Of a stretch of 43,493 bases of DNA, positions 14,038 to 21,421 are shown piece by piece. Position 1 is the stretch's first letter. Every line of letters begins with the position of its first letter. Made by a program: the position numbers and the translations under genes. Origin of the DNA: Flavipsychrobacter sp. (GTDB lineage Bacteria; Bacteroidota; Bacteroidia; Chitinophagales; Chitinophagaceae); assembly GCA_017849575.1 (NCBI GenBank), contig JAFIGV010000022.1:1-43493 (forward strand), given 5' to 3'. The notes beneath the pieces were generated by a model. It did no database searches. It was not told the DNA's origin and saw only the letters and a program-made list of their open reading frames with translations.

Positions 14038-14373
14038 ACGGATGAGTTTGGAATCAATGCTAAAAAATCGTTCCGGTGGGGGATGGGGGGTGTTACTTTG
14101 ATCAGTAGGAGTTAATTAGATTTACAACTTCATAATTTTTTTCGCCGCAACAAATGTTCGAACAAACCTTCAAAAATATTGACGACATACTTCACAAAGA
14201 CCAGGTTGCGGTAGTGAATTAGACTATGTAGAGCAAACCTCCTGGATTTTGTTCCTGAAATATTTGGACGACTTGGAGAAAGACCGAGCCACAGCAGCAG
14301 AACTAACAGGCAAGACTTACACGCCTATCATTGACAGAGAGTATCAATGGACAGTTTGGGCAATGCCAAAAAT

Positions 14374-14407
14374 CTCCTCCCCTGACGGGGGAGGTCGGGA
14401 GGGGGCT
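14374..14407 (+). repeat. GC-rich palindromic repeat in hsdM (family D)
   Basis: A hairpin CTCCCC-TGAC-GGGGGAG followed by GTCGGGAGGGGGC, inside an otherwise ordinary hsdM frame. It encodes ISSPDGGGREGAG between WAMPK and KLDHHKALTGDD, where I recall HsdM homologues having a shorter loop. It looks like an in-frame insertion of a repeat resembling the CTCCCC/GGGGAG repeats seen in many Bacteroidota genomes (recalled, not checked). Confidence 0.6.
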
Positions 14408-15439
14408 GGAAAACTGGACCACCACAAAGCCCTGACGGGTGACGACCTCACCGACTTTGTAAACAACAAACTCTTTCCTTACCTCAAAAAGTTTAAGCTA
14501 AATGCCGAAAGTGCCGACACCATTGAATACAAGATTGGCGAGATTTTCAGCGAACTGAAAAAACGCATACAAAGCGGCTACAATTTGCGTGAAGTGATTA
14601 ACCGTATTGACGAGTTGCGTTTCCGCACCCATGCAGAGAAGCACGAAATGAGCCACCTGTATGAAGACAAAATCAAAAATATGGGCAACGCTGGACGAAA
14701 CGGTGGCGAATACTACACGCCTCGTCCGCTCATTACCACCATTGTAAGAGTGGTTGCCCCAAAAATTGGCGACAAAATTTATGACGGTGCTTGCGGTTCT
14801 GCAGGTTTCCTTTGCGAAGCCTTTGCTTACCTCAACAAAAATGGGCTTTCAACAAAAGACACGGTAACGCTTCAAAAGAAAACCTTTTACGGCAAGGAGA
14901 AAAAATCATTGGCGTATATCATTGGTATTATGAATATGATTTGCGCGGTGTGGAAGCTCCCAACATCATACATACGAACACCCTTGCCGAAAACCTTGCC
15001 GATATACAGGAAAAAGACCGCTATGATGTGGTGCTTGCCAATCCGCCTTTTGGTGGAAAGGAACGTGCCGAAGTGCAACAAAACTTCCCGATTAAAACGG
15101 GTGAAACTGCTTCGCTCTTTTTGCAGCACTTTATTAAAATTTTGAAAGCAGGTGGCAAGGCAGGTGTGGTCATCAAAAGCACGTTTTTAAGCAATACCGA
15201 CAATGCCACGGTTGCCATACGCAAAACCTTGTTGGAAAACTGCAACCTGCATACCGTGTTGGATTTGCCGGGCGGAACTTTTACCGGTGCAGGAGTAAAA
15301 ACTGTTGTGATGTTTTTTGAAAAAGGCAAAGCCACGCAAAAAGTTTGGGTTTATCAGTTGAACCTTGACCGCAATTTGGGCAAGACCAACCCACTCAACG
15401 AAAACGACTTGGCAGAATTTGTAGCACTGCAAAAACTTG

Positions 15440-15459
15440 CCCTGAGCGGAGCCGAAGGG
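15440..15459 (+). repeat. GAGC/TCGA hairpin A1 (in hsdM)
   Basis: Arms CCCT/AGGG around core GAGCGGAGCCGA. Read in frame as LALSGAEGT. First of eight copies of this family in the hsd locus. Confidence 0.75.
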
Positions 15460-15552
15460 ACTGCCGATAGCGAAAACTCCTGGACGGTAAATGTGAAAGA
15501 CATTGACCAAAGCACATTTGATTTAAGCGTAAAAAGCCCGAACAAAAAAGAA

Positions 15553-15574
15553 GTGGTTCGACTACGCTCACCAC
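15553..15574 (-). repeat. GAGC/TCGA hairpin A2 (in hsdM)
   Basis: In minus orientation: arms GTGGT/ACCAC around core GAGCGTAGTCGA. Read in frame on the plus strand as VVRLRSPHE near the HsdM C-terminus. Confidence 0.75.
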
Positions 15575-15656
15575 ACGAGATTTTGGAAGAGATGCAAATG
15601 CTTGATGAAGAAGCCGAAAATGTCCGAACCGTGATTAGCAGGATTATTGGATTATA

Positions 15657-15762
15657 GTCTTGAACCATGATTAAAAGGATTTAAGAATTACCATGATTTC
15701 AATAAGTGAGATAATGAAAAATCAAGTTATCAAGAAAATCAAGAATAATCAAGGTTCAAGAC
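15657..15762. repeat. TCTGAACC/GGTTCAGA palindromic element C1
   Basis: The left arm GTCTTGAACCATGATTA (15657-15673) and the right arm TAATCAAGGTTCAAGAC (15746-15762) are inverted copies with a ~72-base interior. The right half contains ATCAAG four times at 8-10-base spacing (15721, 15729, 15738, 15748). It starts on the last base of the hsdM stop codon and ends one base before the ATG of the GxxExxY gene, which the repeat's trailing ACAATG in fact supplies. Confidence 0.8.
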
Positions 15763-15763
15763 A

Positions 15764-16141
15764 ATGAAAGAGCAGGAGTTAACACATAAAATTATTGGGG
15801 CAGCTATGGAGGTGCACAAGCACTTAGGCAATGGATTTCAGGAAGTGGTATATCAACGGGCCTTAGCTATTGAGATGCAATTGCAGAATATAAATTTTAT
15901 CAGAGAGCAAGAAATGCCTTTGCAGTATAAAGGCTACGATGTGGGAACAAGGCGAGTAGATTTTTTTGTGGAAGAAAAAATAATGGTAGAAATAAAAGCC
16001 ATTATCAATTTAGAAGATGTGCATTTGGCTCAGGCGATGAATTATGTGGAAGCATACAATTTGGAAATAGGATTGCTGATAAACTTTGGTGCAAAAAGTT
16101 TGCAATTCAAACGTGTTCACAATAACAACAAGAAGTCTTGA
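15764..16141 (+). CDS. GxxExxY protein (PD-(D/E)XK_3 nuclease-like), between two palindromic elements
   Basis: A 125-residue protein of the GxxExxY family (PF13366 / TIGR04256). The signature is G24-F-Q-E27-V-V-Y30, and a PD-(D/E)XK-like core is visible: D66 (RRVDFF) and E76-I-K78 (IMVEIKAI). The function of the family is not established; the fold suggests DNA cleavage. Its ATG lies at the end of repeat element C1 (GACAATG) and its TGA stop is formed by the left arm of element C2 (GTCTTGAACC), so the gene exactly fills the space between two copies of the same repeat. It interrupts the usual hsdM-hsdS order and is not part of the restriction enzyme. The arrangement suggests a repeat-linked mobile module (inference). 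Confidence 0.88.
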   Translation: MKEQELTHKIIGAAMEVHKHLGNGFQEVVYQRALAIEMQLQNINFIREQEMPLQYKGYDVGTRRVDFFVEEKIMVEIKAIINLEDVHLAQAMNYVEAYNLEIGLLINFGAKSLQFKRVHNNNKKS

Positions 16142-16230
16142 ACCATGACTATGAAGGATTATCGAATTACCATGATTACAAATCAAAAAAATCAAGAAAT
16201 CACGTCAATCTTGAAAATCAAGGTTCAGAC
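16135..16230. repeat. TCTGAACC/GGTTCAGA palindromic element C2
   Basis: The left arm GTCTTGAACCATGACTA (16135-16151) contains the stop codon of the GxxExxY gene; the right arm is AATCAAGGTTCAGAC (16216-16230). The interior shares ATTACCATGATT with C1 and is rich in ATCA units. Confidence 0.8.
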
Positions 16231-16245
16231 AACAAGTGCCGAAAT

Positions 16246-16336
16246 TCTGACCATGATTAAAGGATTAATAGGTTAACATGATTAAGACAGAAAAAAAATC
16301 AAGCAATCAAGCCAATCCTATAAATCATGGCTCAGA
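16246..16336. repeat. TCTGAACC/GGTTCAGA palindromic element C3 (diverged)
   Basis: The left arm TCTGACCATGATTA (16246-16259) and right arm TAAATCATGGCTCAGA (16321-16336) match with a few differences. The right half closely resembles that of C4. It ends 4 bases before the hsdS ATG at 16341. The upstream in-frame ATG at 16278 lies within this repeat and is not taken as the start. Confidence 0.7.
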
Positions 16337-16340
16337 CAAT

Positions 16341-17759
16341 ATGAAGCAAGGTTGGGAAATAAAGAAGTTGGGAGACATCTGTTCAATTCAGTTGGGCAAA
16401 ACGCCTTATCGTAAAAATCCAAAGTTTTGGGATAAGGAAAAATTAAGTGGAAACGTGTGGCTATCAATTTCTGATTTGAAACACGGTGAATATATCTTTG
16501 AAAGTGCGGAACAGGTTACTGATTTAGGAGCAAAAGAAATTGTAAAAATCCCGAAAGGCACAATGCTTTTAAGTTTCAAACTAACCTTGGGGCGTGTATC
16601 TTTTGCGGGAACAGATTTATATACAAATGAAGCGACTGCGGCTTTATTGAATTTAAACAAGAAAATTTCAAAAGACTTTCTGTTTTATTATTTCAGTTTA
16701 TTTGATTGGGATAAAGCAGCAGAAGGTGATGTAAAAGTAAAAGGCAAAACTTTAAACAAACAGAAATTAAAGGAGCTGCAAATCCCCCTTCCCCCTCTCC
16801 CCGAACAACAACGCATCGTTTCCATCTTAGATGAAGCCTTTGCGGTTATTGAGCGAAGTCGAAATAATGCCGAACAAAACCTCAAAAACGCCAAAGAATT
16901 GTTTGAAAGCTATTTGCAGGGGGTGTTTGAAAGAAGAAGTCTGAACCTTGATTCAAATGATTTTCTTGATGCCCCTGATTCTAAACCCAATAAAAAATCA
17001 AGCAATCAGGCGAATCAAAAAAATCAAGGTTCAGACAATTTGCAGGGGGTGTTTGAGAATCGGAATTGGGAGAAAAAGAAATTACAAGATGTTGCAAAAG
17101 TTTTTGGACGTGGAAAATCGAAACACAGACCAAGAAATTGGGAAGGATTGTATGGCGGTAACTATCCATTTATTCAAACAGGTGAAGTTCGCAATGCAAA
17201 CAAATACATTACAAGTTATACCCAGACTTATAACGAAGCAGGATTAGCACAAAGTAAACTTTGGAAGAAAGGAACCATTTGCATAACTATTGCTGCAAAC
17301 ATAGCCGAGACAGCAATTTTAGATTTTGATGCTTGTATTCCTGATAGTATCATCGGTTTTGAAGTTGACGAGAAAAAAGCCGACTTAAATTTTGCTTATT
17401 ACTTGTTGCAATATTTCAAGGCAGAATTACAAAAGTTAGGAAAAGGAAGTGCCCAAGACAACATCAATTTAGGAACATTTGAAAATCAGTATTTCCCTTT
17501 TCCAACTTTAATTGAACAACAAACCATCGTCCGCCGATTAGATACTCTGCGAGCCGAAACACAAAAGCTGGAAGCGGTGTATCAAAAGAAAATGGATGAT
17601 TTGGAGGAGTTGAAAAAATCCATCTTGCAAAAGGCATTTGCGGGGGAGTTGCGTGGTGGTGAGCCTGCCGAACCAAAAATTGAAAAATCCCGAAGGGATG
17701 ACAAGATTATAGAAAACAAGATTAACCACCCACGAACCAACCCCGAAGGGGTGAAATAG
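16341..17759 (+). CDS. hsdS: Type I restriction specificity subunit HsdS, with in-frame repeat insertions
   Basis: An open 472-residue HsdS, starting at ATG 16341 (MKQGWEIKKLGDICSIQLGK). Two target-recognition domains each end in the conserved region: PLPPLPEQQRIVSILDEAF with ENAKELF-like helix for the first, and PTLIEQQTIVRRLDTLRAE for the second. HsdS directs HsdM and HsdR to a bipartite DNA site. Three foreign inserts are read through: hairpin A3 at the start of the central helix, palindromic element C4 adding 42 codons (residues ~197-238) between the two halves, and a C-terminal tail (from ~439) encoded by hairpin A4 and two CCCGAAGGG repeats. It is the only intact hsd gene, but without HsdM and HsdR it has no enzyme to guide. 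Confidence 0.9.
   Translation: MKQGWEIKKLGDICSIQLGKTPYRKNPKFWDKEKLSGNVWLSISDLKHGEYIFESAEQVTDLGAKEIVKIPKGTMLLSFKLTLGRVSFAGTDLYTNEATAALLNLNKKISKDFLFYYFSLFDWDKAAEGDVKVKGKTLNKQKLKELQIPLPPLPEQQRIVSILDEAFAVIERSRNNAEQNLKNAKELFESYLQGVFERRSLNLDSNDFLDAPDSKPNKKSSNQANQKNQGSDNLQGVFENRNWEKKKLQDVAKVFGRGKSKHRPRNWEGLYGGNYPFIQTGEVRNANKYITSYTQTYNEAGLAQSKLWKKGTICITIAANIAETAILDFDACIPDSIIGFEVDEKKADLNFAYYLLQYFKAELQKLGKGSAQDNINLGTFENQYFPFPTLIEQQTIVRRLDTLRAETQKLEAVYQKKMDDLEELKKSILQKAFAGELRGGEPAEPKIEKSRRDDKIIENKINHPRTNPEGVK
16846..16867 (+). repeat. GAGC/TCGA hairpin A3 (in hsdS)
   Basis: Arms TTATT/AATAA around core GAGCGAAGTCGA. Read in frame as VIERSRNNA at the start of the central helix. Confidence 0.75.
16912..16930 (+). 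repeat. Left copy of 19-bp direct repeat flanking element C4
   Basis: ATTTGCAGGGGGTGTTTGA, identical to 17038-17056. It encodes LQGVFE on both sides of the inserted element and looks like a target-site duplication. Confidence 0.85.
16939..17036. mobile_element. TCTGAACC/GGTTCAGA palindromic element C4 inserted in hsdS
   Basis: Perfect 15-bp inverted arms GTCTGAACCTTGATT (16939-16953) and AATCAAGGTTCAGAC (17022-17036), with ATCA units in the right half as in C1-C3. It is flanked by the 19-bp direct repeat 16912-16930 / 17038-17056. The extra DNA, 16931-17056, is 126 bases, exactly 42 codons, so HsdS stays in frame. There is no coding capacity of its own; it is a non-autonomous MITE-like element. 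Confidence 0.8.
17038..17056 (+). repeat. Right copy of 19-bp direct repeat flanking element C4
   Basis: Identical to 16912-16930, beginning one base after the right arm of C4. Confidence 0.85.
17657..17675 (+). repeat. GAGC/CCGA hairpin A4 (3' end of hsdS)
   Basis: Arms TGGT/ACCA around core GAGCCTGCCGA. Read in frame as GGEPAEPK, just past the point where HsdS proteins normally end (KAFAGEL). Confidence 0.7.
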
Positions 17760-18297
17760 CATTATGGCAGGAACATTTTCACAAATTTATATCCAATGCG
17801 TTTTTGCTGTAAAAGGCAGAGAAAACCTATTGCAAAAACCTTGGCGAGATGAAGTGTTCAAATACATTGCAGGGATCATTAAAGGCAAAAGTCAAAAACC
17901 TATTATCGTAAATGGTGACGCAGACCACGTTCACGTATTTGTGGGTTTAAAGCCAGCAATGAGCATTTCAGATTTAGTGAGAGACATTAAAAACAATTCT
18001 TCCAATTTTTTTAACGAACAAAAATTCGTCAAAGGAAAATTCTCTTGGCAGGAAGGATATTGTGCATTCTCTTATGCTCATTCGCAAATTGAAAATGTGT
18101 ATCAAAACATTGCTAATCAGGAAGAACATCACAGGAAAAAAACATTCAAAGAAGAATACCTTGTTTTCTTCAAAAATTTGAAATTGAATACAACGAAAAA
18201 TATTTATTTGAATGAATAGATTAAACATATCACCCCTTCGGGGTTTAGTTGACTTTTGGTTTGCATTGAGCTATAATCTTTTCATCCCTTCGGGATT
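17686..18297 (+). mobile_element. Y1-transposase element bounded by nested CCCGAAGGG repeats
   Basis: The outer inverted repeats, 27 bases at 17686-17712 and 18271-18297, agree at 26 of 27 positions (AATCCCGAAGGGATGA then AAGATTATAG). Inner hairpins ACCCCGAAGGGGT (17740-17752) and ACCCCTTCGGGGT (18232-18244) also mirror each other, at nearly equal distances of ~40 bases from the outer ones. The only gene inside is the HUH transposase. This is the layout of a REP-associated tyrosine transposase or IS200-like unit. Its left side forms the last codons of hsdS. Confidence 0.8.
17764..18219 (+). CDS. IS200/RAYT-like Y1 (HUH) transposase
   Basis: A 151-residue single-strand DNA transposase. The HUH metal motif is H55-V-H57 (DADHVHVFVGL). 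The catalytic tyrosine is most likely Y113 in NVYQNIANQEEHH, preceded by the family motif FSWQEGYCAFSY. The length is normal for the Y1_Tnp family. These enzymes recognise hairpins and move single-stranded DNA; REP-associated members act on short palindromes scattered in a genome. Here nested CCCGAAGGG hairpins flank the gene on both sides, so they are its probable substrate. It starts 4 bases after the hsdS stop, on the same strand, and separates hsdS from hsdR. The protein looks intact. Confidence 0.92.
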   Translation: MAGTFSQIYIQCVFAVKGRENLLQKPWRDEVFKYIAGIIKGKSQKPIIVNGDADHVHVFVGLKPAMSISDLVRDIKNNSSNFFNEQKFVKGKFSWQEGYCAFSYAHSQIENVYQNIANQEEHHRKKTFKEEYLVFFKNLKLNTTKNIYLNE

Positions 18298-18515
18298 GCA
18301 AAACAAAATCGGTATTCTATTGAGCAAAATATGCAAGAAAATCAATAAACACTCGATAGGATGCTCAATAGATATCAAGAAAATATGCCAGTTACATACC
18401 ATTTTGGGCTTAAAATCTTATTTGATGGTTATTTGAGGACAAGGCATGTTATCATTGCTATAACACTGATTAGCAATAGTGTTTTATTTGATGGTCATTT
18501 GATAAAAGTGAAATT
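18220..18515. other. Gene-free interval between transposase and hsdR with inverted and direct repeats
   Basis: No coding frame is supported. After the transposase repeats there is an 11-bp perfect inverted repeat (TCTATTGAGCA 18316-18326, TGCTCAATAGA 18362-18372), two 19-base near-identical direct repeats (TTATTTGATGGTTATTTGA and the same with C at position 13, ~63 bases apart) and a small AACACT/AGTGTT hairpin between them. It may hold the hsdR promoter. Confidence 0.55.
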
Positions 18516-18911
18516 ATGAACGAAGCAGAAACATGAGCAGAACTCATAGACCCAAAACTAAAGGCTTGCGGTTGGGGCGTTGTGGAAGGCTCTAAAGTCC
18601 TTCGTGAATACAACATAACGGCAGGTAAAATTCAAGCAGGCGGTGGCAGGGGTAAAAGAGAAATTGCCGATTATGTGTTGGTTTACAAAGGCATCAAACT
18701 TGCGATAATTGAAGCCAAAAGCAGTTTCTGTGAAGTGGCGGAAGGTGTGATGCAAGCGAAGAAATATGCTGAGAAACTAAAGTTAGAAACCACCTATAAC
18801 ACCAACGGAAAAGCCATTTACCAAATCTGTATGAAATCAGGCGAAGAAGGCTTGGTAACAGATTTTCTAAGCCCTGACGAACTTTGGAATAAAACCTTTC
18901 CGAAAGGCAGT

Positions 18912-18934
18912 CACACTGAGCCTGTCGAAGTGTG
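18912..18934 (+). repeat. GAGC/TCGA hairpin A5 (in hsdR)
   Basis: Arms CACACT/AGTGTG around core GAGCCTGTCGA. Read in frame as SHTEPVEVW. Confidence 0.8.
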
Positions 18935-19134
18935 GAGAGAAAAATTTGCCAATGTTCCTTTTGAAGATAAAAGTGGAAGTTGGCAGTTAAGATATTATCA
19001 GGAAATAGCCGTTCAACGCACCGTTGAAGCCATTGCACAAGGCAAAGAAAGAATATTGCTGACCCTTGCCACCGGAACAGGAAAAACGGCAATCGCTTTT
19101 CAAATAGCGTGGAAACTTTTTCAAACCCGTTGGA

Positions 19135-19153
19135 CGGTTCGACAGGCTCACCG
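19135..19153 (-). repeat. GAGC/TCGA hairpin A6 (in hsdR)
   Basis: In minus orientation: arms CGGT/ACCG around core GAGCCTGTCGA. Further outside, CGTTGG and CCAACG also pair. Read in frame as TVRQAHRPN. Confidence 0.8.
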
Positions 19154-19345
19154 ACCCAACGAACCGGCAAGAAGACCGAGAATTTTATTTTTAGCAGACA
19201 GAAACATTTTAGCCGACCAGGCCTACAATTCATTTTCAGCATTTCCCGAAGATGCTTTGGTGCGGATAAAACCCAACGAGATAAAGAAAAGCGGAAAAGT
19301 GTCCACCAACGGCAGCATTTTCTTTACCATTTTTCAAACCTTTAT

Positions 19346-19364
19346 GACTTCGACAAGCTCAGTC
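19346..19364 (-). repeat. GAGC/TCGA hairpin A7 (left side of GIY-YIG module)
   Basis: In minus orientation: arms GACT/AGTC around core GAGCTTGTCGA. Read in frame as TSTSSVT. Confidence 0.8.
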
Positions 19365-19711
19365 ACCAAGGATGAAAAAGAAGATTTTGCTGAAATTCTC
19401 AATGTTGAAAAAGGAAAACAAGGCTATATGTACATTCTTCAATGTGCAGATGGGAGTTTTTATACGGGAAGTACAAAAAATTTGCAAAGAAGAATTGAAG
19501 AACATAAAAGTGGTGAAGGAGCAAAATTCACAAAGGAACATTTTCCAATTAAATTAGTTTATTACGAATCATTTGAAAGAATAGATTTAGCATTTAAAAG
19601 GGAAAAACAAGTTCAAGGTTGGAGCAGGGTAAAGAAAATTGCTCTAATCAAAGGAGATAAGGAGCAACTCATAAAACTTTCGAAGAATAAAGCTGAAAAT
19701 GAGCCAAAGGT

Positions 19712-19730
19712 CGCTGAGCCTTTCGAAGCG
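19712..19730 (+). repeat. GAGC/TCGA hairpin A8 (right side of GIY-YIG module)
   Basis: Arms CGCT/AGCG around core GAGCCTTTCGA, inverted relative to A7. Read in frame as VAEPFEAF, directly before the HsdR sequence FGEYPADYF. Confidence 0.8.
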
Positions 19731-21421
19731 TTTGGCGAATATCCAGCCGACTATTTTGATTTCATCATTATTGACGAGTGCCACCGTGGTGGAGCCAATG
19801 ACGAAAGCAATTGGAGAAGCATTTTAGAATATTTCAGTCCGGCAGTGCAATTGGGTTTAACCGCCACACCTAAGCGGAAAGACAATGTTGATACTTACAA
19901 ATATTTTGGCGAACCAGTTTACATCTATTCGCTGAAAGAAGGTATCAATGACGGTTTCTTAACGCCTTTCAAGGTAAACGCATCAAAACTACTTTGGACG
20001 ATTACCGCTATACTTCGGACGATACGATTGTGGAAGGAGAAATTGAAGAAGGCAAATTGTATGAAGAAAAAGACTTTAACCGCACGATTGAAATTGTAGA
20101 GCGAGAAGCGAAAAGAGTAAACATCTTTTTAGAAGAAGCCAACCAAAACGAAAAGGCAATAATCTTTTGTGCCAATCAAGGACATGCAGCATTGATACGG
20201 GATTTGGTAAATCAAAATGCAAAAAGCAAAGACCCTTTTTATTGTGTTCGTGTTACTGCCAATGACGGAGAAGAAGGCGAAAGACTGTTGAGAGAATTTC
20301 AGGACAATGAAAAAACAATCCCTACCATTCTGACCACTTCGCAAAAGCTCTCTACGGGCATAGATGCAAGGAACATTCGGAACATCGTTTTGCTTCGTCC
20401 GGTCAATTCAATGATTGAGTTTAAACAGATTGTTGGACGTGGCACACGTCTGTTTGAAGGCAAAGAGTTTTTTACCATTTACGACTTTGTAGATGCCTAC
20501 AAACATTTTTCAGACCCTGAATGGGACGGAGAACCTTTGGAAGAAGAACCAAGTGGAGTGAAAGAACCTAAAGGCGAATACAAACCCAGAGGACCTAAAG
20601 AACCGACTGAAACCGAACGCAAGCAGAAGATAAAAATCAAATTGCGAAACGGAAAGGAAAGAGAAATTCAATCAATGATTTCCACGTCGTTTTGGAGTGC
20701 GGACGGTAAACCGATTTCGGCAGAAGAATTTTTGAATAACCTATTTGGCGAGTTACCCAAGCTTTTTAAAGACGAAGAAGAGTTGCGGTAACTGTGGAGC
20801 AATCCAATGACAAGAAAAGTTTTGTTGGAAAATTTAGATGCAGCAGGATTCCCAAAAGACGATTTACTGACTTTGCAGAAGTTGGTAGATATGGAAAAAA
20901 GCGACTTGTATGATGTGTTGGAATACGTTTTTAATGGTGACTATATCGCAATGACAAGAGAAGCCAGAGCCCAAGCAGCCGAAGCGACCATTTTTGCATT
21001 ACTCAACGACAAACAAAAAGAGTTTATCACTTTCGTTTTGAGCAAATACATAGAAACAGGCGTGGACGAACTCGACCAGGAGAAACTACCCATCTTGCTG
21101 ACCAACAAGTATCAATCTTTGCAAGACGCCAAAGAAGTTTTGGGAAATGTGGCAAACATCAGCCGACTGTTTATAGAATTTCAAGAACATCTTTACCAAC
21201 AGAAAGCAGCGTGAAACCTTAAGTCTGAAGATTGGCATTTCGTCATTTTGCCTTCCCCCTTTCATCAGGCAGACTGTTGAACTTTAACGTTTCCTACAGC
21301 GTTTACATAAAGAGTATCTATTAGTTATGCAGCAAATCAAATAGGTCTTATTGATGGGCTCGCATAATTTGCGCCCCGGAAAACAAGGCTGCCCATTGTT
21401 TTTAACCTCTACCGGTTGCTT

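What the first reader, a model, noticed from the sequence alone, without database searches (positions are those of the whole stretch)
15440..19730. Eight GAGC/TCGA hairpins with different but always self-complementary arms, all read in frame
Copies A1-A8 share a short core, GAGC-(3-4 nt)-TCGA or CCGA, but their arms differ in every copy: CCCT/AGGG, GTGGT/ACCAC, TTATT/AATAA, TGGT/ACCA, CACACT/AGTGTG, CGGT/ACCG, GACT/AGTC, CGCT/AGCG. In each case the two arms pair with each other. The structure is conserved while the arm sequence varies, which ordinary copying of a fixed repeat does not give. Either the core inserts into pre-existing palindromes, or arms co-evolve because a single-strand enzyme needs the hairpin. 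All eight are in hsdM, hsdS or hsdR, all are frame-neutral, and I saw none in the flanking ~36 kb.
Basis: partly seen in the sequence, partly recalled or inferred. Interest (0 to 1): 0.88.

Follow-up and report, generated by a model that had tools for sequence, protein, structure and literature searches.

The report
Shape-kept hairpin repeats with nuclease partner
Eight short DNA hairpins sit in frame inside the genes of a bacterial restriction system; relatives elsewhere show that their stems change in matched pairs while the tip stays the same, and that they keep company with a small GIY-YIG nuclease, one copy of which is itself lodged inside one of these genes.

Summary
All eight copies are real, with perfect 4-6 nt arms; shuffled windows gave none. 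Elsewhere in this 3.6-Mb genome no core has arms over 4 nt, so they probably came with the hsd operon. They behave like REPs whose partner is a GIY-YIG nuclease, not the nearby IS200-type transposase. One GIY-YIG gene lies in frame inside hsdR between two hairpins. GIY-YIG relatives in Bacteroidota are flanked by the same hairpin (12 of 29 loci) or a variant core (3 more). The hsdR insertion probably has one origin, yet orthologous hairpins carry different, paired arms (95% and 92% of cells paired, 0 of 500 shuffles), and in the three closest copies hairpin codons have almost no synonymous change while the rest is near saturation. 'Inserts into pre-existing palindromes' is not supported at four sites. 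Six of 18 hand-picked plasmid GIY-YIG loci, all six alphaproteobacterial, have CGTC-tagged REPs on both sides; that REP class was said to lack a dedicated transposase (PMC3733652). Cleavage, mobility and single-strand recognition are inferred. The 2025 Ssn work (recalled, not readable here) probably covers part.

The parts
15440..15459 (+). Hairpin A1 in hsdM, CCCT[GAGCGGAGCCGA]AGGG; about 21 nt longer than repeat-free homologues L127 and L131
15553..15574 (-). Hairpin A2 in hsdM, GTGGT[GAGCGTAGTCGA]ACCAC; same length as repeat-free homologues, which have GCGGT on one side only
16846..16867 (+). Hairpin A3 in the hsdS coiled coil, TTATT[GAGCGAAGTCGA]AATAA; same length as repeat-free homologues
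17657..17675 (+). Hairpin A4 near the hsdS 3' end, TGGT[GAGCCTGCCGA]ACCA
18912..18934 (+). Hairpin A5 in hsdR (site S1), CACACT[GAGCCTGTCGA]AGTGTG; 11 residues against 5 in the commonest repeat-free homologues
19128..19161 (-). Hairpin A6 in hsdR (site S2), inner arms CGGT/ACCG, outer arms CGTTGG/CCAACG, of which + strand 19128-19133 is conserved host sequence; 12 residues against 6-7 in the commonest repeat-free homologues
19339..19371 (-). Hairpin A7 in hsdR, left border of the GIY-YIG insertion (S3), inner arms TGACT/AGTCA, outer CCTT/AAGG
19703..19736 (+). Hairpin A8 in hsdR, right border of the GIY-YIG insertion (S3), inner arms CGCT/AGCG, outer GCCAAA/TTTGGC
19428..19703 (+). GIY-YIG nuclease domain lodged in frame in hsdR between A7 and A8
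18582..20099 (+). hsdR (5' part of the frame; continues in another frame as ORF 19994-20791)
16278..17759 (+). hsdS
14249..15657 (+). hsdM, split by a frameshift into ORFs 14249-15145 and 14791-15657

Best explanation
The eight hairpins are in-gene copies of a REP-like palindrome whose partner enzyme is a small GIY-YIG nuclease. The constant part is the tip, GAG-N5/6-CGA; the stem is read as a shape. The nuclease probably binds or cuts the repeat when it is single-stranded, recognising the tip and a paired stem of any sequence, so a copy stays usable only if both arms change together. In hsdR the nuclease gene itself sits in frame between two such hairpins, whose 3' sides face the host. Insertions that kept the frame survived in tolerant stretches of hsdM, hsdS and hsdR, and the operon carried them by horizontal transfer into this genome. 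Shown: the arms, the covariation, the GIY-YIG association, synonymous constraint on the two border hairpins. Probable: a single origin of the insertion in hsdR. Inferred: single-strand recognition, cutting, mobility and the transfer route.
For: Covariation: window 8 of 8 copies paired over four positions against a mean of 1.25 when shuffled; genus g17 44 of 56 against 12.6, maximum 22; S3 right border 95% of cells paired, score 0.744 against 0.159, 0 of 500 shuffles; S3 left border 91.7%, 0.681 against 0.118, 0 of 500. Association: hairpins with arms of 4 or more lie within 250 nt of 12 of 29 GIY-YIG loci fetched by protein similarity; reversed-motif control 0 of 29; a variant core in 3 of the other 17 (no control run). 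In 80 loci chosen by hsdR, 10 of 13 GIY-YIG places but 1 of 10 IS200-type transposase places have a hairpin within 250 nt; 8 of those 10 are the hsdR-lodged copies and so not independent. Phylum: the consensus 15-mer is in 51 of 296 genomes, reversed control 0; GIY-YIG relatives at 1e-10 in 32 of those 51 against 93 of the other 245 (counted by hand; Fisher P 0.0017). The in-hsdR GIY-YIGs cluster: 10 rows, 2 changes against 9.3 shuffled. dN/dS about 0.03 between window, L125 and L129. In 13 hairpin codons 0, 1 and 1 synonymous differences per about 11 sites against 0.51-0.61 per site in the other 142 codons. CGTC- or TGTC-tagged palindromes on both sides of GIY-YIG in 6 of 18 plasmid loci, reversed-tag control 0.
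Against: Free hairpins are predicted to be weak: -1.3 to -4 kcal/mol as DNA, z from -1.07 to +0.54, and for 16842-16871 the best fold is not the arm pairing. 14 of 29 GIY-YIG loci had neither core, and 19 of 51 genomes with the 15-mer had no GIY-YIG hit at 1e-10. Of 18 plasmid loci 12 had no tagged palindrome. Window copies lack the TGTC/CGTC tag. The same constraint could come from an RNA hairpin, and identical hairpins beside diverged codons could come from gene conversion between copies; the constraint rests on three sequences and 13 codons, and non-synonymous change there is like that of the rest. No cutting or movement was shown.
Confidence: 0.66

Rival explanations
1. The arms are made to match by a copying process, not by selection. 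Once a seed hairpin is in place, fold-back template switching at replication copies one flank into the other (quasi-palindrome correction, recalled), so the stem grows into host sequence and changes on both sides at once. Not fully exclusive of the best explanation.
For: Stems extend outward beyond a 1-3 nt bulge more often than chance in the hsd loci (6 of 28 de-duplicated sites with 5 or more further pairs against 0.8, 0 of 500 shuffles) and in other Bacteroidota loci (4 of 64 against 0.9, 6 of 500) (L095 in the second set is the same hsdR site as L183 in the first). At S2, both ends of S3, the 16851 site, L127 and L179 the 3' outer arm is host sequence also present in repeat-free homologues (read by eye). 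The S3 alignments show 20 cells with two-sided changes and none with a one-sided standard change, whereas stepwise compensation should leave some.
Against: It does not explain why the non-palindromic tip is kept, nor the near absence of synonymous change. The genus g17 copies show no outer stems (0 of 38) yet covary strongly. At 15558 the older arm is on the 5' side, and L129 has a half-changed GTGGT/ACCGC pair there. Five cells in the S3 alignments are unpaired.
Confidence: 0.25
2. The core inserts into pre-existing palindromes, which supply both arms.
For: At 15558 repeat-free homologues have the same length and already carry GCGGT on one side.
Against: At S1, S2, S3 and 15444 the commonest repeat-free homologues are 5-7 codons shorter (or lack the whole insertion), and I saw no matching palindrome in them by eye. 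Copies in a genus with many repeats keep arm positions 2 (C-G, 55 of 56) and 5 (A-T, 38 of 56) (position 1 was fixed by the search pattern), as an element with its own arms would.
Confidence: 0.03
3. The hairpins are REPs of the IS200-type (RAYT-like) transposase at 17764-18219.
For: The gene lies between hsdS and hsdR, and such transposases are thought to mobilise other REPs (PMC3733652, abstract).
Against: It is flanked by different palindromes, CCC(C)TTCGGG(G). In hsdR-chosen loci only 1 of 10 related transposase places has a GAGC hairpin within 250 nt.
Confidence: 0.03
4. The constraint acts on messenger RNA: in-frame RNA hairpins that tune translation or protect the transcript.
For: Synonymous constraint does not tell DNA from RNA.
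Against: Copies occur in both orientations within one operon. In the S3 alignments no G-U type one-sided change was seen. Closeness to a nuclease gene points to DNA.
Confidence: 0.08

Closest known systems
CGTC/TGTC-tagged REPs (Di Nocera and others 2013, PMC3733652; include Neisseria dRS3 and Rickettsia RPE-4 and RPE-6)
   Same: Short palindromes with a few major loop types, varying stems, dimers in opposite orientation, intragenic copies (paper, sections 6 and 17 part 1); a TGTC tag is present in genus g17 relatives of the window repeat. GIY-YIG genes are flanked by such REPs in six plasmid loci.
   Different: The paper's Table 1 gives no association with transposase genes for this class and its main text does not contain 'GIY'. 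Window copies lack the tag and have 4-6 bp arms.
Ssn family of GIY-YIG single-strand nucleases with their repeat in Neisseria (recalled; the paper is not held)
   Same: Small GIY-YIG protein paired with a high-copy repeat, as recalled.
   Different: Cutting was not tested here; the lodging inside hsdR and the arm covariation are not known to me from that work, but I could not read it.
REP/RAYT systems (GTAG REPs, REPINs)
   Same: Enzyme gene flanked by its own palindromes; eight inverted doublets of the repeat 57-74 nt apart among 40 stretches, some fetched because of them.
   Different: The enzyme is GIY-YIG, not a tyrosine transposase.
Rickettsia palindromic elements in protein genes
   Same: Palindromes read in frame inside protein genes (PMC3733652, passage).
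   Different: No sequence comparison was made here.
Homing endonucleases in inteins
   Same: Nuclease domain lodged in frame in a conserved enzyme.
   Different: No splicing domain was among the Pfam hits; the frame reads straight through.

Membership tests
CGTC/TGTC-tagged REPs | Unpaired 5' tag CGTC or TGTC next to the stem | tested here: not met
   No window copy has it (contexts). It is present in many genus g17 copies and in the REPs of 6 of 18 plasmid GIY-YIG loci. So the window copies work like this class but are not filed in it.
CGTC/TGTC-tagged REPs | 8-9 bp stem and 4-5 nt loop | tested here: inconclusive
   Window arms are 4-6 bp plus a possible G.A, A.G and G-C at the tip, then 5-6 nt; it depends on counting the G.A pairs.
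CGTC/TGTC-tagged REPs | Many copies per genome | tested here: not met
   Only the hsd cluster in this genome has paired arms over 4 nt; met in G012, 76 matches against 6 for the reversed pattern.
REP/RAYT | Repeat flanks a REP-associated tyrosine transposase | tested here: not met
   1 of 10 places in hsdR-chosen loci.
Ssn-type GIY-YIG nuclease | GIY-YIG domain | tested here: met
   PF01541, E 2.5e-16.
Ssn-type GIY-YIG nuclease | Site-specific cleavage of single-stranded DNA at its repeat | not testable with these tools
   Needs purified protein; the definition itself is recalled.
Ssn-type GIY-YIG nuclease | Cognate repeats beside the gene | tested here: met
   A7 and A8; 12 of 29 relatives.
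Intein-borne homing endonuclease | Protein-splicing domain | tested here: not met
   No such domain among the five Pfam hits of the hsdR frame.

The most novel reading that the evidence does not exclude
A GIY-YIG nuclease is the missing dedicated enzyme of the CGTC/TGTC class of REPs across phyla. It reads the loop and the stem shape, not the stem sequence, so stems drift in matched pairs and are rewritten together, partly by copying the neighbouring host sequence. In the window's lineage it has become a non-splicing in-frame passenger of hsdR whose hairpins are still maintained at DNA level.
Probability: 0.3. Interest if true: 0.85.

Novelty: new variant of a known kind. Interest (0 to 1): 0.64.

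Why it matters
It ties a class of REPs that was said to lack a dedicated transposase to a specific nuclease family, with a rule that can be tested (constant tip, any paired stem). It gives a natural set of covarying DNA hairpins for measuring how such an enzyme recognises shape. It also shows a small nuclease gene that sits inside hsdR in several Bacteroidota genomes and in one assembled Ignavibacteria genome, without a splicing domain and with its flanking hairpins kept.

Tried and rejected
Pre-existing palindromes as targets: rejected at four sites by repeat-free homologues. The neighbouring IS200-type transposase as partner: rejected. Chance: rejected. Inverted duplication of the target as a general rule: weakened, since genus g17 copies show no outer stems and at 15558 the older arm is on the 5' side; the direction elsewhere rests on six places read by eye, and the printed output was cut, so other sites were not read. 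Free-energy evidence for the hairpins: tried, not supportive. Literature: no held paper contains any of six spellings of the repeat; searches found 0 papers, 11 found 2 and 50 found 5, none about this pairing by title; one found 207 and listed 20, 80 found 508 and listed 8, so most of those were not seen. Of PMC3733652 I saw the outline with abstract, passages, section 6 (54) and part 1 of 2 of section 17 (55). For all other papers I saw search listings only. The Ssn paper is recalled, not read. A structure prediction was considered and dropped.
Full report
1. Observation. A scan for GAGC-N3/4-YCGA found 12 cores in the window. The eight between 15444 and 19726 have perfect arms of 4-6 nt, the other four have none, and 60 shuffles gave a mean of 4.0 cores and none with arms of 4 or more. 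All eight lie in hsdM, hsdS or hsdR. In the whole 3.6-Mb genome 58 places match TGAGCN{3,4}YCGAA, against 11 for the reversed pattern; 57 were read, and of the 49 outside the cluster 2 have arm 4 and none 5 or more; three of the 49 have consensus loops but arms of 1-2. The simplest reading is that the repeats came with the operon; transfer itself was not tested. The eight use both orientations and several frames; by hand reading none is in the frame in which T-GAG reads as TGA. hsdM and hsdR are each split by a frameshift elsewhere.

2. What sits in hsdR. Pfam finds a GIY-YIG domain in the hsdR frame (residues 281-351, E 2.5e-16). It lies between hairpins A7 (minus strand) and A8 (plus strand). 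The best 80 hsdR relatives were fetched from named genomes (557 qualified). At this site (S3) 78 of 82 sequences (window, L095 and the 80) could be read; by my count 43 of the 78 have a short linker of about 14 residues (such as SGTDAEGKPAPYFG). L095 has an open frame of 999 codons (931 within the piece held). L201 has a hairpin at each end, the left one with a decayed core, and only a few bases between, like a nuclease-less derivative. The ten GIY-YIGs lodged in hsdR cluster in a tree of 48: 2 changes against 9.3 in shuffles, and a starred branch separates them, with one long-branched row (L032), from the rest. Few columns support that tree; a single origin is likely, not proven.

3. Arms at orthologous hairpins. 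For the right border of S3, 11 sequences (10 distinct) have arms CGCT/AGCG, TGGT/ACCA, CCCT/AGGG, GCCT/AGGC and others: 95% of cells paired against 64.5% in shuffles, covariation score 0.744 against 0.159, 0 of 500. For the left border, 11 sequences (9 distinct): 91.7% against 61.9%, 0.681 against 0.118, 0 of 500. Slid partners give at most 0.36 and 0.33. I chose sequences with a recognisable hairpin, L201 and (left only) L172 have no GIY-YIG between the borders, and related rows inflate such scores; the slid control keeps relatedness. Over both alignments 20 cells carry two-sided changes, none a one-sided standard change, and 5 are unpaired, so intermediates are scarce. Cells count sequences, not events.

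4. Constraint. Between the window, L125 and L129 the lodged GIY-YIG has dN about 0.05, dS 1.6-1.9 and dN/dS about 0.03; for the other pairs that could be computed the ratio is 0.07-0.25, and for many dS was saturated (8 of the 10 were extracted). In the 13 hairpin codons of these three there are 0, 1 and 1 synonymous differences per about 11 synonymous sites, against 0.51, 0.61 and 0.58 per site in the other 142 codons of the block; non-synonymous change is similar in both. Selection on the protein does not explain that. Gene conversion between repeat copies, or an RNA role, remain possible.

5. Partner enzyme. Of 29 loci fetched by GIY-YIG similarity (L095-L123, one for each of the best-matching genomes out of 125 positive of 296), 12 have hairpins with arms of 4 or more within 250 nt and the reversed motif gives 0. 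One of the 12, L095, is itself a copy lodged in hsdR. Of the other 17, L098 and L108 have palindromes with a variant core GAGGNNCTCGA and L116 has GAGCTTGACGA (no control). In the 80 hsdR-chosen loci, 10 of 13 GIY-YIG places but 1 of 10 IS200-type transposase places have a hairpin within 250 nt; 8 of those 10 are the lodged copies. By genome, 32 of 51 with the consensus 15-mer have a GIY-YIG hit against 93 of 245 without it (P 0.0017); 19 of the 51 have none at that threshold.

6. The repeat where it is numerous. In genus g17 (G012, with some stretches of G210 and G265) the commonest form is TGTC-ANNCT[GAGC..YCGA]AGNNT. Stretches were fetched by core and loop, not by arms beyond the first pair, which the search pattern fixed. 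Fifty-six copies with canonical loops pair in 50 cases each at arm positions 3 and 4 against 25.2 and 23.6 when right arms are shuffled. Position 6 is paired in 6 of 56, no more than shuffled (9.2). Eight pairs of copies in opposite orientation lie 57-74 nt apart (some stretches were fetched because such pairs had been seen), as in REPINs. The stem is thus held as a shape over about five base pairs with the tag unpaired.

7. Outer stems. In the hsd loci stems often continue after a 1-3 nt bulge: 6 of 28 de-duplicated sites with 5 or more further pairs against 0.8 in mismatched pairs, 0 of 500; other Bacteroidota loci 4 of 64 against 0.9, 6 of 500; genus g17 0 of 38. At S2, both ends of S3, the 16851 site, L127 and L179 the 3' outer arm is host sequence also found in repeat-free homologues, and the 5' outer arm is new (by eye). 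At 15558 it is the 5' arm that is older. This fits copying from the flank, or selection that tunes the free arm to the fixed one. I did not separate the two.

8. Repeat-free homologues. S1: commonly 5 residues against 11; S2: 6-7 against 12; S3: 14 against 130; the 15444 site about 21 nt shorter. Other lengths and other repeats occur at S1-S3 as well. These homologues lack the arms. The 15558 and 16851 sites have the same length with and without the repeat, and the old sequence partly resembles the core, so there the repeat replaced rather than added.

9. Other phyla. A protein search of plasmids found 46 records. I fetched 18 by hand (13 alphaproteobacterial, 3 betaproteobacterial, 1 cyanobacterial, 1 of Bacteroidota). 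Six, all alphaproteobacterial (Azospirillum, Novosphingobium, Rhizobium, Neorhizobium, Shinella, Sphingobium), have CGTC- or TGTC-tagged palindromes on both sides of the GIY-YIG gene within about 350 nt; the reversed tag gives 0 of 18. Their stems differ (ATCCCCGC, GCCCCGTG, ATCCCAGGG, ATCCTCGGG, ACCCCGGG) while the loop is CTTGA in at least one copy in five of the six. Di Nocera and others (PMC3733652) describe such repeats, note TGTC variants and in-gene copies, include dRS3 and RPE-4/6, and conclude that this class apparently lacks a dedicated transposase; 'GIY' does not occur in the main text.

10. Verdict. The finding is real. It is best read as a shape-kept palindrome of a GIY-YIG nuclease, of REP-like behaviour, with one nuclease gene lodged in hsdR. 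It is a new variant of a known kind, because REPs with alternative complementary stems are known and, as I recall, a GIY-YIG nuclease family with its repeat (Ssn) was published in 2025; I could not read that paper. Against the reading: predicted folding is weak, 14 of 29 GIY-YIG loci lack both cores, and no activity was shown.

Noticed in passing
window 15654-16346 and 16939-17045; loci L285-L313: A GxxExxY (PDDEXK_3) gene at 15764-16141 lies between copies of a second repeat (AATCAAGGTTCAGAC and its inverse), also read in frame in hsdS. In 17 of 30 GxxExxY loci of Bacteroidota (window included) the best inverted repeat between the flanks is longer than the longest of 20 plain shuffles; in 7 of the 17 it contains GTCTGAA, often followed by GATT units. 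Possibly another nuclease-repeat pair.
   Followed up: partly
window 17686-18297: An IS200-type transposase gene (17764-18219) is flanked on both sides by CCC(C)TTCGGG(G) palindromes, a REP/RAYT-like unit between hsdS and hsdR; close relatives (85-89%) lie within 1 kb upstream of the hsdR match in L127, L138, L141 and L142.
   Followed up: partly
L095 and L183: The hsdR-lodged GIY-YIG is bordered by tandem in-frame copies of the hairpin unit (six in a row in L183; PELVDSV repeats in L095).
   Followed up: no
window 14249-15657 and 18519-20791: hsdM and hsdR reading frames are broken (frameshift in each; by eye a TGA close to the likely hsdR start), so the system may be decaying here or the assembly may have errors.
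   Followed up: no
L159, L165, L171, L195 at hsdR sites S1 and S3: Other repeats (of the ATTGACAATTGAC kind) occupy the same variable hsdR linkers in other genomes, so these linkers collect several kinds of in-frame repeat.
   Followed up: no
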